This document shows, piece by piece, positions 22,464 to 62,800 of a stretch of 64,000 nucleotides of DNA; position 1 is the stretch's first letter, and the number at the start of each line of letters is the position of its first letter. The position numbers and the translations under genes are program-made. Source of the stretch: Diplonema papillatum (lineage: Eukaryota > Euglenozoa > Diplonemea > Diplonemida > Diplonemidae). The notes beneath the pieces are model-generated. The model did not search any database. It saw only the letters and a list, made by a program, of their open reading frames with translations, and was not told where the DNA came from. The stretch lies in the NCBI GenBank assembly GCA_030068145.1, contig JAPJBO010000901.1, positions 28,541 through 92,540 of the forward strand. Direction: 5' to 3'.

Positions 22464-25400
22464 ATGCTCAAGAGCGAGACTGTCATCAGCAGCAGGAACC
22501 TGTTAATCCCGCGACCGAGTTTAGGGAAGTCTGGCAGTGGGTTTCTAGCACTCAATGCAGCCGGTGAGGCGGCGCGGAAGTGCAAAGCGCCGCAGGGGCG
22601 CGTCACCATCGTATTCACCGACGTCCAAGACTCGACGAAGCTATGGGAAAGCGATCAGGAGGCCATGAGCATTGCCGTGAAGGAACACCACAAAGCGATG
22701 CGCACCGGCATCAAGCGGTTCTCAGGCTTCGAAGTGAAGACGGAAGGCGATGCCTTCATGGTCGCGTTCCAGACCTCCCGCGACGCGGTTAAGTGGTGCT
22801 TGCACATGCAAGAGACGTTGATCAACGTGGACTACCCGATGCCTCTTTTACTGCAAGCGTCGGCTCGCCTCGAGAAGGACAAGTACGGAGCGATCATCTG
22901 GAGGGGCCTACGCGTCCGCATGGGGATCCACACCGGCACTCCGGAATCCACCCTCGACCCTGTGACCGGACGTATGGACTACTACGGTCCGATGGTCAAC
23001 ATGACCGCGAGAGTGTCCGGACAGGCGAGGGGTGGTCAGATCCTGGTGACGAAGGACACGTTCGACGAGATCAGGCACGACCTTCGGTCCATCGGGCTGC
23101 CGACCATTAATGACGCCGGTTTGGTCGACCTGAGGGGGATCTCCAAGTCTGTTCGGTTGTACGCGGTTCTCCCAGACAAGCTTGCGCAAAGGAGCTTCGA
23201 CATCGACAACAACCCGGTTGCGCAGATCGAGTACCTGCAAGGGCTCACCAAGGAGCTCAACAGGGATCTCGAGAATCTCGACCCCGGCGCCCACCTCATG
23301 TTCGACTCCGTCCCGGCACGGCACCAGGATCTGCACGTCCAGCCCGTCGTCGTCGACATGACGTGGCTCCGGCAGAAGCTCGAAGGCCAATCCGACAGCG
23401 ACCGCTTCGCGTCCCTCCAAAGCGCACTGGAAGGTCTGCATTCCTTTTCCCCACGTGGCACCAGCACCCACGACCAGCAGGGGGGGGAGCCTTCTGAACG
23501 GGGTTTCCGTGACGCAACGAAAGAAGTCAGGCGTGGCGTCGTCCGAGGGCCGAGCGCTTTTCGACAAGACGGCTTTCGCCCTCTGCGACGAGGACGTCAT
23601 CGAAACGACGATGGACGCGCTGAAGGTCGCCGCGACCAACGTTTACGACCAGCTGCACTTCATGACGACATCCGTGGCGAACGAGATGACACCACCAGGT
23701 CGGACACATAAAGGAGAAACAAGAGTTTTTCCTCGTACTTCTCGGAGGGGGGAAGACCGACTCTACGTACCAAGGTCAAGGGATCCTCATACCGAAGACG
23801 GGATGGGTGTTCCAGACCGTGATCAGCTGGTGGAGACGACAAAGATCAACTCTCCTACTTCCGGGCCTAAGCATAGCAGCCTACGGCGGGGACCCTCCAG
23901 CCGCACTACGTGAACCTGCTGGGCGAGCACCTACATCCCTCACACTACCCGCGATATGCTTAGCTGTGTGTGTGTGGGAAAGGAACCCTTTCGACGATGT
24001 CCACCCGGGGGGACTCTAAACCCCGGAATCCTCAAGCAAACTAAATCAGGCGTGGCGTCGTCCGAGGGCCAAGCGCTTTTCGACAAGACGGCTTTCACCC
24101 TCTGCGACGAGGACGTCATCGAAACGACGATGGGCGCCCTGATTACGACCAGCTGCACCTCATGATGACGTCCGTGGCGAACGAGATGGCGGGGACCCTC
24201 CAGCCGTACTACGTGAACCTGCTGGGCGAGCTCCAGACGAGCCTGCAGTGCATCGGCATCTGTGAAGAGAGGATGGGGGCCGTCCGCGACGGCAAAGAAA
24301 ACATCGAAGGGCAAGTCACCAGACTCGAGGCGCAGGTCGCCGCCTGCGAAGAAGAGCTGCGGTACTATCGGGCAAGGAACAAGATTCTTAGAGCTAAAAG
24401 CAAAACACTTACAAATTTGGCTAGCCGTAGTCAAAGTGCGCAATCATACCTACATCCCTCACACTACCCGCGATATGCACAGCATAGAATATCATACGAT
24501 ACCGTAAACCCTTAAAGGAACCCTTTCGACGATGGCCACCCGGAGACTCTAAACCCCGGAATCCTCAAGCGAACTTGCACCCCAAACTAAATCAGGCGAG
24601 GGCCAAGCGCTTTTTGACAAGACGGCTTTTACCCTCTGCGACGAGGACGTCATCGAAACGACGATGGGCGCCCTGAAGGTCGCCGCGACCAACGTTTACG
24701 ACCAGCTGCGCCTCATGATGACGTCCGTGGCGAGACGGCGGGGACCCTCCAGCCGTACTACGTGAACCTGCTGGTCGAGCTCCAGACGAGCCTGCAGTGC
24801 ATCGGCTTCTGTGAAGAGAGGATGGGGGCCGTCCGCGACGGCAAAGAAAACATCGAAGGGCAAGTCACCAGACTCGAGGCGCAGGTCGCCGCCTGCGAAG
24901 AAGAGCTGCGGTACTATCGGGCAAGGAACAAGATTGTTAGAACTAAAAGCAAAACACTTCCAAATTTGGCTAGCCGTAGTCAAAGTGTGCAATCATACCT
25001 ACATCCCTCACACTACCCGCGATATGCTTAGCAGTATAGAATAGAATACGATACCTTAAACCCTTAAAGGAACCCTTTCGACGATGGCCACCCGGAGACT
25101 CTAAACCCCGGAATCCTCAAGCGAACTTGCACCCCAAACTAAATCAGGCGTGGCGTCGTCCGAGGGCCAAGCGCTTTTTGACAAGACGGCCTTTACCCTC
25201 TGCGACGAGGACGTCATCGAAACGACGATGGGCGCCCTGAAGGTCGCCGCGACCAACGTTTACGACCAGCTGCACCTCATGATGACGTCCGTGGCGAACG
25301 AGACGGCGGGGACCCTCCAGCCGTACTACGTGAACCTGCTGGGCGAGCTCCAGACAAGCCTGCAGTGCATCGGTATCTGCGAAGAGAAGATGGACGCCGT

Positions 25401-59800: not shown

Positions 59801-62800
59801 CAAGTCCGCCGTGCTCTGATTGCCGAGCCATTTCTCGTCCCCATTGTCTTTGCACTTCGTGCACGCGCGGGCAAGGGGGTACAGAGTCCAGTTCAGTGGG
59901 CATCACGCGTTCGCATCTCTCGAGGAAGGACCTCGGGACACGTGCGAAAGACAACGACGACGGCGAAGTTCGCAAGCGCAAAAAGGGCAAGGAGTCCCAC
60001 TCGCACGGTCCAGTGCGTGAAGTTGTGGTCGTTCCCCCCGTCGCTTTTTCGATTGTGAGAAGTGCACGCTTTTCTAGTCAATTCATGATAACCAACTGCA
60101 TATAAAATGTGTCACGGGATAAGCCGGCAGCCGCCGCAAATGCATGCTGATCCGTGTGGTCAGTGTACTTAAAAGTTCCCAATGCTTAACGGCTTTATCA
60201 CGTGGGCGGCCCTGAGATTACCCCCTCAGGTGACACCACTTTATTTTTAGCCATACTTCAACTCAGGGGACTTTAAAAGTTTGGGGTCCGAGCCAAAAAC
60301 CCGGTTTGAGCCAAAAAACCGGTTTGGTTATGTAGGTCGGTGTATCACACTTGCATGCGGTGCTGCATCACGAGCGGGCTACTTTCTGCACTCTGTGTGG
60401 AGTTTTCCGCACTCTAGGCACTCTCGGTTTCCATGATCCACATGAAGGAAGCAAAAAGAAGCACTGTGTTGGTCAGAAAAGCACATTTTTCTTTCAGAAC
60501 AAAAGGTTGCAATAAGAAATGACAAAAAGGCGGAGACGTAAAGAAACACCAGCTTCATGATGAGCCCCCCACTCCCCCCCACTCCCCGTTTTTCCCCCTT
60601 TTTAGGTTAAGCTGTTTTTTGAGGGCTTATTTGTACGCTATTACAGGCAGGTACGTTCATTACTACTATAGTACTACTACACAGTGAAGGTGGTAAAACT
60701 TTGAAATCGGTCTATAAGATTTTTTTTTTTCCCCTCAAAAACTCAAACCGGTTTATTCGGTTTGTCAAACCGATAAACCGGTATTTTAAAGTCCCCTGCT
60801 TCAACTCTCTTTCAATCGAGTATACCGAAGTATTACTATTGAGGATCTCAGTCCAGTGCTCGGAGCAAAGATCCGATCCTTCACCGTAACTTAGGCCGAG
60901 CCCCGGTAGTGCCCATTCTTTTTGCACTTTCCGTGCTGTTCGGGATACGGATGTCCAGGAGCACTCTCGGGATAAACCCACAAGCATGGGTGTCGTTGTC
61001 CAGGGCCTTGTTTCTGGCGGCTGGATCCATCGGCTGCAGAATGGGCTTTAAATCTGAAGGATGCGGTTGTATCCCCCATCCGGATAGTCCTTCCTTTCGT
61101 CCAGCTCTGTATGGCGTAGTTGACGTTAAAACGCTCCGTGTAGCTGTGTTCGGGCGAAAACTGGTGGTGCACCCACGTTTTTCTCGGGACGTGTGTGCCT
61201 GCAGGAAAGCCCCTGAACCGCATCCATCAAGGCCCGGATGGATGTGGGGAAGTTCTTCGTGATGAACGAGCGATCATTCTCACGCCTTTCCTGACTCGCC
61301 AACCCTCACGTTTCCAGGTGCTCCCCCATAACCTTCCAATATTCGTCAAAGCGAGATACCGGGGTTTTCGTTTCCTCCTGGCCCGGATACAGCAGGTCGT
61401 GGATTTCTTCAGACGTGAAATCGCCCAGCAGGACCCGAGAGAAAGCCTCGTTTTCGGTCCGTCCTGCAGATTGGTCGCCTGTGAGTCGCGCAACGATGGC
61501 CCTCAAAACACCACTCCGAGCCACAACTCGAAACTCGGAAATAAACTTTGGTCTGCGCCTCTGTGATGACACTGTTCATCTTCGGGTCCCTGCACGGGAT
61601 GTCCTGTCCGTAGCGCTTTTGTACTTCGTGCTCGTTTTTGGCCTTCATTCTTTCGACCTCCTCTGTGAGCAAAACAACCAGGTCTTTCAATTCCTGTATC
61701 AGCCCTGGGTTCGCCCTGACTTTTGTAATCGCACTGTCCAGTGCGGTTGCGACCCCTCCCAGGTTCCTCTGCGTGTGCGCACTTCCCGCTGGTTTGCAAC
61801 CTCCCGGAAGGCATCCCCAACCCGCCGCAACACCGCCGGCGTCCCTGCTGGAGGGCGGAGAAGAAGGAGCAAATGGTAAACAACATGCTCATTTGAAGCG
61901 ACTGTGAGAAGCGTCGAAGACCCCGCCGATAAAGAAGAAGGCAGAGTGAGACCAAGGAAGAGCTACTCGCGTAGTTCAAGCAACATCGAGGCTTGAACCC
62001 GCGTGCCAAGTTAAAATGGCAGAGTTGGTCGAGAAGGTCAACGTCATCAAGCGGCGGGTTGCGACGGGTTGGGGATGCGGTTGCGGCCGGTTGGGGATGC
62101 CTTCCGGGGGGTTGCGACGGGTTGGGGATGCCTTCCGAGGAGTTGCAGCCGGTTGGGGCCTTCCGGGGGGTTGCGGCGGGTTGGCGATGCCTTCCGGGGT
62201 GTTGCTGCGGGTTGGGGATGCGGTTGCGGCGCGAGCGAAAATCGCCGGAAGCACAAAATATAACCCGCCCCGCACCCACATAGCCCTTACTTGCTCTATA
62301 GAGAACCCCCGGAGAGATTCCGGAAACTCAAGCGAACTCCAACTCCAGAAAGCCGCGTTACAGAAAGACCCCATTTGCCGAAGGTCACCCGAAGGTACTT
62401 AAAATCCCGGTTTCTCATGCGAACCTTAACTCTCAAAAAGGGCTACAAGGCAACCCCTGCTCAACTAGTGCTCGCCTGCCTTGATGGCACTTGCACCTTA
62501 AAGAACTCAATGCTCAACTTGTAGAACGTGGGGGGCCCAAGACTACACTCCACGAAGGAATGTACTTGGTGTCGGTCACAAACAGTCCCGGACATGGCTA
62601 GCCATAACCCATATCGAACGTGTACACCCAGAACGAAAGCGTGCACTAAATATACAACCCGTAACCACATAGCCCTTTCTTGCTCTAAGAGAACCCATTC
62701 ATGAACGGTCACACGGAGACCCTAAAACCCCGGAATTTCAAGCGAACTTTAACTCTAAAAAACGCGTCACAGAAAGACCTGCAGCGCCTCGGGCGCGAGC

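What the first reader, a model, noticed from the sequence alone, without database searches (positions are those of the whole stretch)
24481..62772. One sequence family forms the 3' ends of introns in unrelated genes (introner-like element)
A 70-170 bp module with ordered words (GTACTGCCACTAC; ATACGATACC; TTAAAGGAACC; CACCCGGAGACT; AACCCCGG; CAAGCGAACTT; AAAAA; then C/TAG) ends exactly at the acceptor of cyclase exon 2 (25147), exon c (62772) and, more diverged, NEK exon 3 (41627). It also occurs at echo acceptors (24049, 24595, 62363) and as solitary copies (30760, 31531, 40645, 44300, 53521, 62380). Shared intron termini in unrelated genes are what introner elements or an intron-generating transposon would leave. 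CCGG...CCGG pairs could fold into a small stem near the branch site.
Basis: partly seen in the sequence, partly recalled or inferred. Interest (0 to 1): 0.88.

Follow-up and report, generated by a model that had tools for sequence, protein, structure and literature searches.

The report
Retroposon family clustered at splice acceptors
The repeated module at these intron ends is the fixed tail of a very abundant, apparently RNA-copied mobile element in a marine flagellate; it was not seen to make introns, but it lands just upstream of gene and exon starts more often than expected and nearly always points the same way as the genes.

Summary
The module is real and far beyond chance: 11 places in the window, all on the coding strand, and about 13,500 genome-wide against 48 in the reversed control. 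It is not an introner. Copies share one 3' end (…AAGCGAACTTKMACTCT + A-run), are 5'-truncated to 21-518 bp, show an excess of short A-led target duplications, and one lies beside empty sites in tandem repeats. That is the signature of a non-autonomous, oligo(A)-primed non-LTR retroposon. The genome is a diplonemid, most likely Diplonema papillatum. Clustering at acceptors is partly right: 11 of 104 copies have a predicted coding start within 80 bp downstream, against 2-3 expected. Eight of these 11 look like gene starts, hence spliced-leader acceptors rather than intron ends. Sense A-runs are enriched there, so target preference may explain it. Copies follow gene direction (24 sense, 2 antisense, 78 undecided), but another repeat leans the opposite way (76 of 100 places), so orientation alone proves no splicing role. 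In the window only the paraflagellar-rod acceptor (62772) is well supported; the cyclase copies are one duplicated block.

The parts
62684..62762 (+). 3' part of a near full-length copy (subfamily B; body begins near 62442), tail ending CTCTAAAAAA
   Evidence: profile hit 73 bits; body shared with L035, L041, L042, L055
62763..62779 (+). 17-bp CGCGTCACAGAAAGACC containing the predicted acceptor (AG at 62771-62772) and the first 7 nt of exon c; repeated at 62354-62370 with one difference: candidate target-site duplication
   Evidence: single case
62364..62440 (+). truncated copy directly 5' of the subfamily B copy
   Evidence: profile hit 47.6 bits
62306..62352 (+). degenerate copy
   Evidence: profile hit 18 bits, E 3.5e-4
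57590..62772 (+). predicted intron of a paraflagellar-rod-protein gene (GT...AG, 5.2 kb) whose 3' end holds the copies above
   Evidence: joined exons match PF05149 across the junction; no RNA evidence
62773..63721 (+). exon c, paraflagellar rod protein
25063..25139 (+). copy before the last cyclase-region exon block; one of three tandemly duplicated copies
   Evidence: profile hit 70.5 bits; tandem blocks
24511..24587 (+). second tandemly duplicated copy
23979..24042 (+). first tandemly duplicated copy, tail partly lost
44383..44456 (+). solitary copy, subfamily A
   Evidence: profile hit 71.6 bits
53604..53688 (+). solitary copy, subfamily A-like
   Evidence: profile hit 56.6 bits
30756..30819 (+). 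solitary 5'-truncated copy, subfamily D-like tail
   Evidence: profile hit 70.6 bits
40645..40683 (+). fragment without tail
   Evidence: profile hit 18.8 bits, E 2e-4
31532..31567 (+). weak fragment
   Evidence: profile hit 13.6 bits, E 0.009
41592..41616 (+). probable 25-nt truncated tail, 11 nt before the putative NEK-region acceptor at 41627
   Evidence: 21/25 match; 0 of 1937 minus-strand slices score as well; below profile threshold

Best explanation
The module is the conserved 3' end of a highly abundant non-autonomous, non-LTR-type retroposon family in a diplonemid flagellate, most likely Diplonema (Paradiplonema) papillatum. Element RNA ending ...CUCUAA(A)n is copied into DNA at sense-strand A-runs by target-primed reverse transcription, leaving a fixed 3' end, variable 5' truncation and short A-led target duplications (shown: anatomy, excess of duplications, one empty site; inferred: enzyme and priming). 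Regions before acceptors here are rich in sense-strand A-runs, so about one copy in ten lies within 80 bp of a predicted coding start, usually at a likely spliced-leader acceptor and sometimes at an intron acceptor (shown: enrichment and A-runs by prediction; inferred: cause). There the last stretch of the intron or spacer is retroposon-derived, and the host AG and neighbouring bases complete the acceptor (inferred, no RNA). Copies are made or kept almost only in gene orientation (shown for the copies that could be judged); the reason is unknown.
For: Copy number: exact 20-mer tail at 2073+2076 places, 0 in the reversed control; with up to 3 mismatches 6962+6604 against 24+24. Fixed 3' end with 5' truncation: lengths 21-518 bp, median 148, for the 76 of 91 instances with a measurable boundary; copies listed. 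Subfamily B copies in L035, L041 and L055 begin with the same word GGTACGGGCTACAAGG. Target duplications that begin right after CTCT: >=5 nt in 38 of 84 copies (swapped controls mean 20, max 26, none of 83 reach it); >=6 nt in 17 of 84 (mean 6.3, max 12). L050 holds a filled site and two neighbouring tandem units empty at the same place, duplication AAAACTTT. Later copies sit in the A-tail of earlier ones (L061, L066). Acceptor proximity: predicted sense coding starts per 40 bp downstream of 104 tails are 7, 4, 1, 2, 0, 1; 11 within 80 bp against 2.2-3.1 expected, P 2e-5 to 4e-4. AAAA rate 0.020 and 0.015 at 5-40 and 40-80 bp before 47 coding starts against 0.005-0.008 at 80-450 bp, with TTTT at 0.003-0.005 within 80 bp. 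In Diplonema japonicum introns A is the most abundant base of the 3' tract (PMC12621601 section 5). Orientation: nearest coding sense 24, antisense 2, none in the piece held for 78 of 104.
Against: The acceptor enrichment is uneven: 3 of the first 50 copies within 80 bp (1.0-1.6 expected), 8 of the next 54 (1.1-1.6 expected); the sample was enlarged after a first inconclusive look, and the bins were chosen after seeing the data. No autonomous partner: 9 reverse-transcriptase 3' flanks, picked from 150 scored of 4330 candidates, hold no convincing tail (best sense hit E 0.15, best antisense E 0.006). Two looser duplication tests gave only a modest excess: shared word >=7 in 9 of 76 against 3.8, score >=8 in 9 of 78 against 3.5, control maximum 7. 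The A-run to T-run ratio elsewhere is about 1.3-1.5 (runs of 4-6), too small to explain the strand bias. AAAA is again high (0.014) at 450-650 bp. Direct repeats starting at the tail are not clearly more common than at random places: 9 of 76 against 24 of 312. No tRNA or Rfam head, so the promoter is unknown. Coding starts come from a codon-usage predictor, not annotation or RNA.
Confidence: 0.85

Rival explanations
1. Exapted acceptor cassette: the tail (TTTAACTCTAAA or TTGCACTCTAAA) brings a branch site and an A-rich tract, so a copy landing upstream of any AG makes or strengthens a trans- or cis-splice acceptor, and selection keeps those copies and the sense orientation.
For: Enrichment within 80 bp of predicted coding starts; AG very close to the tail in L037, L101, L142 and the rod gene, leaving little room for a host branch site; sense bias.
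Against: 93 of 104 copies are not within 80 bp of a predicted coding start; A-run targeting alone predicts the clustering; another repeat leans the opposite way, so strandedness does not need splicing; no RNA data.
Confidence: 0.2
2. Introner: the element carries or recruits both splice sites and creates new introns on insertion into exons.
For: Shared 3' sequence before acceptors in unrelated genes; the 17-bp duplication around the rod-gene copies spans the acceptor, as in introners that recruit a splice site from the target duplication (PMC9860276, passages).
Against: Variable 5' ends with no shared donor; no exon-element-exon unit outside duplicated gene starts among the 17 near-coding copies; 8 of 11 copies within 80 bp precede a likely start codon; the supported intron is 5.2 kb.
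Confidence: 0.04
3. Local tandem duplication of gene starts, as published for this organism, carried a pre-existing sequence to several acceptors.
For: Cyclase-region blocks 83-96% identical; duplicated gene starts in L067 and L183/L087; 'repeat-bounded gene structures' reported in dozens of gene models (PMC10161547, passages).
Against: Explains only linked copies; the dispersed copies inspected have unrelated flanks, and there are thousands.
Confidence: 0.1
4. A conserved regulatory RNA structure or signal required at acceptors.
For: Conserved ordered words.
Against: No common RNA structure in 78 copies; a tenth of measured copies are 37 bp or shorter; most are not near predicted coding starts.
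Confidence: 0.02

Closest known systems
SIDER retroposons of Leishmania
   Same: Short, extinct, truncated retroposons in well over a thousand copies in an euglenozoan with polycistronic transcription, with a sense bias (SIDER2 in L. infantum: 87% in 3'UTRs, 82% of those sense; PMC11520807, passages; sense copies typically 4-fold more abundant in gene clusters, PMC2689281, passages).
   Different: [quoted passage not shown] Sequences were not compared.
SINEs mobilised by LINE machinery (general knowledge, recalled)
   Same: Non-coding, fixed 3' end with oligo(A), 5' truncation, A-led target duplications, thousands of copies.
   Different: No recognisable tRNA or other Rfam head in the loci tested, and no LINE sharing the tail found in the nine tested.
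Introners / introner-like elements
   Same: Mobile repeat near splice sites; in one case a target duplication that spans an acceptor.
   Different: No common donor, no intron-length unit seen, mostly not next to predicted coding exons, anatomy of an RNA-copied element.
Repeat-bounded gene structures of D. papillatum (PMC10161547)
   Same: Tandem echoes of gene starts flank several copies (cyclase, L067, L183/L087).
   Different: The passages and section read do not link the echoes to a retroposon.

Membership tests
Introner | Element spans donor to acceptor and creates an intron on insertion into an exon | tested here: not met
   5' ends vary 21-518 bp; no exon-element-exon unit apart from duplicated gene starts among the 17 near-coding copies of 157 (predictor-based, known to miss some)
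Introner | Many near-identical introns in unrelated genes | tested here: not met
   Only tails recur before coding starts; 8 of 11 copies within 80 bp have an in-frame ATG close by
Introner | Spliced out of mRNA | not testable with these tools
   No RNA reads or annotation available for this genome
Non-autonomous non-LTR retroposon | Fixed 3' end with variable 5' truncation | tested here: met
Non-autonomous non-LTR retroposon | Target-site duplications | tested here: met
   38 of 84 with >=5 nt against control mean 20, max 26; empty site in L050; looser tests modest
Non-autonomous non-LTR retroposon | Autonomous LINE partner with matching 3' end | tested here: inconclusive
   No convincing tail in 9 sampled RT flanks; 4330 RT candidates exist
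SINE (strict) | RNA polymerase III head from tRNA, 7SL or 5S RNA | tested here: not met
   ARAGORN 0 in 17 loci; no such Rfam match in 7 loci at E<=1
Leishmania SIDER / ingi-L1Tc clade | Shared 77-79-nt 5' signature | not tested
   Signature known here only from abstracts and passages; sequence not compared
28S-rRNA-derived repeats of D. papillatum (about 3600 pieces, PMC10161547) | Sequence derives from 28S rRNA | tested here: inconclusive
   No LSU match in L035, L042, L054 at E<=1; the search for the genome's own 28S did not complete

The most novel reading that the evidence does not exclude
The retroposon tail is a portable 3' splice-acceptor module: its end supplies a branch site and A-rich tract, so insertions upstream of AGs have created or replaced acceptors for both spliced-leader trans-splicing and cis-splicing in hundreds to over a thousand diplonemid genes (extrapolated from 11 of 104 copies and about 13,500 tails), and target duplications that copy the acceptor let insertions at exon edges be tolerated and generate 'echo' acceptors.
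Probability: 0.2. Interest if true: 0.75.

Novelty: new member of a known kind. Interest (0 to 1): 0.42.

Why it matters
It gives a concrete identity to a very abundant dispersed repeat of what is most likely the D. papillatum genome, whose paper says many dispersed repeats have no obvious origin (section 8). It shows a strand-locked retroposon family whose copies collect before coding starts, makes it testable whether retroposons can supply trans-splice acceptors, and offers a sequence mark of transcription direction. It also warns that shared sequence at intron ends need not mean introners: an oligo(A)-primed retroposon plus A-rich acceptor regions gives the same picture.

Tried and rejected
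Introner reading: rejected on 5' truncation, missing donors and missing exon-element-exon units. RNA stem: RNAalifold gives no structure over 78 copies. tRNA or other known RNA origin: none in the loci tested. GTAAGT near the head of subfamily D looked like a donor, but D copies extend further upstream, so it is internal. LINE partner: 9 sampled RT lineages hold no convincing tail. Long target duplications as the rule: direct repeats starting at the tail are not clearly more common than at random places (9 of 76 vs 24 of 312), although single cases (L067, L184/L141, rod gene) look like it. Sense bias as proof of a splicing function: weakened when another repeat of 7,441 places proved to lean the other way, 76 of 100 listed places lying on the strand opposite to the tail family's majority on the same contig (55 of 67 on C1-C7, but only 21 of 33 on C8-C12). 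Species by the SL-5S-U2 unit: the one SL tandem unit read (L187) and two single SL loci (L039, L040) hold no Rfam match, so the species rests on SL and genome size. The search for 18S did not complete. PDB search of the rod protein: no match. Paper searches gave nothing used beyond one abstract on a trypanosomatid 5' signature. Rows left out of the 104-copy count: 6 of the 20 pieces without a recognisable tail; the 16 pieces and the 3-kb loci, fetched for other ends. Run with the same settings, the 24 of those in which the strict tail pattern was found give 3 sense starts within 80 bp (L037, L074, L075; L074 is the same copy as L129 in the 104) and no antisense one.
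Full report
WHERE THE WINDOW IS FROM. The window is part of contig C901 of a 271-Mb assembly in 2910 contigs. One isolated copy (L039) reads ACCAACGATTTAAAAGCTACAGTTTCTGTACTTTATTG, followed further on by an ATG. The species is inferred, not read from a label. The SL-5S-U2 unit described for that species was not found in the three SL loci examined.

THE OBSERVATION. A profile of the 84-bp core finds 11 places in the window, all on +, against none in 20 shuffled windows. 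Seven window copies were among the 78 training sequences. The NEK-region match is a 25-nt tail (21/25) below the profile threshold but above anything on the minus strand. The three cyclase copies are one block duplicated in tandem. The same exon start at 23524 has no element before it, so that acceptor is not secure. The rod-gene acceptor at 62772 is supported by a Pfam match that runs over the junction. The element stops at CTCT, or a variant, plus an A-run; the AG of the rod gene and of the NEK region lies 10-11 nt further on, in host sequence.

WHAT IT IS. Genome-wide the exact tail occurs 4149 times (0 in the control), and 13,566 times with up to three mismatches (48 in the control). Copies from unrelated places agree up to ...CACTCTAAA and then stop agreeing; upstream they stop at different points. 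Measured lengths run from 21 to 518 bp, median 148, in 76 of 91 instances. There are several subfamilies (my labels A, B, C, D) with related tails; A and B share part of a body, and three B copies have the same start. Duplications that begin right after CTCT and end at the 5' boundary are in clear excess over swapped controls when tested in that register; two looser tests had shown a modest excess. In L050 a copy of about 76 bp interrupts one unit of a tandem repeat, while two neighbouring units are intact at the same point; the duplicated target is AAAACTTT. This anatomy is that of a non-autonomous non-LTR retroposon. I do not call it a SINE in the strict sense, because no pol III head was found, and no partner LINE was identified.

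WHERE IT SITS. I fetched 110 copies chosen by exact word in contig order, without regard to genes. Six, all from the subfamily D list, showed no recognisable tail in the piece fetched and were dropped. Of the remaining 104, 15 have a predicted sense coding start within 240 bp downstream and 1 has an antisense one. By 40-bp bins the 15 fall 7, 4, 1, 2, 0, 1. Eleven within 80 bp compare with 2.2 to 3.1 expected from two background rates (0.026 and 0.0375 starts per 100 bp; a third, upstream, rate was lower, 0.015). A first look at 50 copies was inconclusive; the excess comes mainly from the 54 added later: 3 of 50 and 8 of 54. The bins were chosen after seeing the data. Eight of the eleven have an in-frame ATG within 75 nt and look like gene starts, where the spliced leader would be added; three do not. 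That criterion is loose, because an internal exon can hold an ATG by chance. So the enrichment is real but probably concerns trans-splice acceptors more than intron ends, and 93 of 104 copies have no predicted coding start within 80 bp. Predictions come from a codon-usage model trained on this sequence.

WHY THERE. Sense A-runs are two to three times more frequent within 80 bp before 47 coding starts than at 80-450 bp, and T-runs are scarce. The rate rises again at 450-650 bp, which I cannot explain. A published survey of six other diplonemids reports A as the most abundant base in the 3' tract of D. japonicum introns (PMC12621601, section 5). A retroposon primed at sense A-runs would therefore land preferentially before acceptors, in sense. 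This is inference.

ORIENTATION. Per contig the listed copies mostly share one strand: 92 to 8 in the 100 places listed; 77 to 5 in the 82 of 100 places on contigs with two or more; 31 to 5 on C8-C12 of the list. Nearest predicted coding is sense in 24 and antisense in 2 of the 26 copies that have any in the piece held, of 104. The A-run to T-run ratio elsewhere (about 1.3-1.5 for runs of 4-6) is too small to explain this. As a control, a different dispersed repeat (7,441 places with up to 2 mismatches, control 0) lies on the strand opposite to the tail family's majority in 76 of 100 listed places (55 of 67 on C1-C7, 21 of 33 on C8-C12). Strandedness is therefore not unique to this family, and is not by itself evidence for a splicing role. 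Leishmania SIDER2 elements show a milder sense bias (82% of those in 3'UTRs; PMC11520807, passages).

LINK TO GENE ECHOES. In the cyclase region, L067, L183/L087 and L184/L141, copies lie between direct duplications of the following gene start or spacer. At the rod gene a 17-bp duplication spanning the acceptor flanks two adjoining copies. These resemble the 'repeat-bounded gene structures' reported for dozens of gene models. Long target duplications could create such echoes and duplicate the acceptor at the same time. However, direct repeats that start at tails are not clearly in excess overall, so this is an idea, not a result.

COMPARISON AND NOVELTY. It works like a SINE or SIDER and fails the tests of an introner made here. 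The listings of my paper searches on Diplonema with intron (15 of 31 shown), introners (8 of 8; 12 of 132) and diplonemid with retroposon or SINE (10 of 854, none on diplonemids) showed no description of this family, which is weak evidence of absence. The supplements of the genome paper, where its repeats are tabulated, could not be read here, so the family may be listed there unnamed. I rate it a new member of a known kind, with unusual strand-locking and acceptor clustering.

Noticed in passing
genome G000; related sequence in L146 and L060: A second dispersed repeat (28-mer GCAGCCTCCTCAAGTATTTCCTACAAAG, 3683+3758 places with up to 2 mismatches, 0 control) lies on the strand opposite to the tail family's majority in 76 of 100 listed places.
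   Followed up: partly
L039 and L040, around position 1500: Isolated spliced-leader exons in the genome; in L039 one is followed further on by an ATG, as expected of retroposed mature mRNAs.
   Followed up: partly
L187 (contig C91): A tandem repeat with 1994-bp period carries a variant spliced-leader sequence followed shortly by an ATG, with no Rfam match such as 5S or U2 RNA.
   Followed up: no
window 55181-55768: Remnant of a retroelement: RNase H-like domain PF13456 (RVT_3, E 6e-10) on the same strand as the genes.
   Followed up: no
window 23479-23486: A G-run in the cyclase exon coincides with a change of open frame; in the other frame the downstream 'echo' exon at 23524 reads on, so the gene may be continuous there or the run miscounted.
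   Followed up: no
L184 with L141 (contig C3 near 607648): A unit of about 160 bp (truncated element plus 47 bp of spacer) is tandemly repeated almost up to a predicted exon.
   Followed up: partly
L067 (contig C2): About 240 bp of a gene's first coding sequence, with its leader, is duplicated on both sides of retroposon copies.
   Followed up: partly
L007:757-906 (-), L038:1-926 (-): 5.8S rRNA-like and partial 18S rRNA-like matches, in line with reported scattered rRNA pieces.
   Followed up: no
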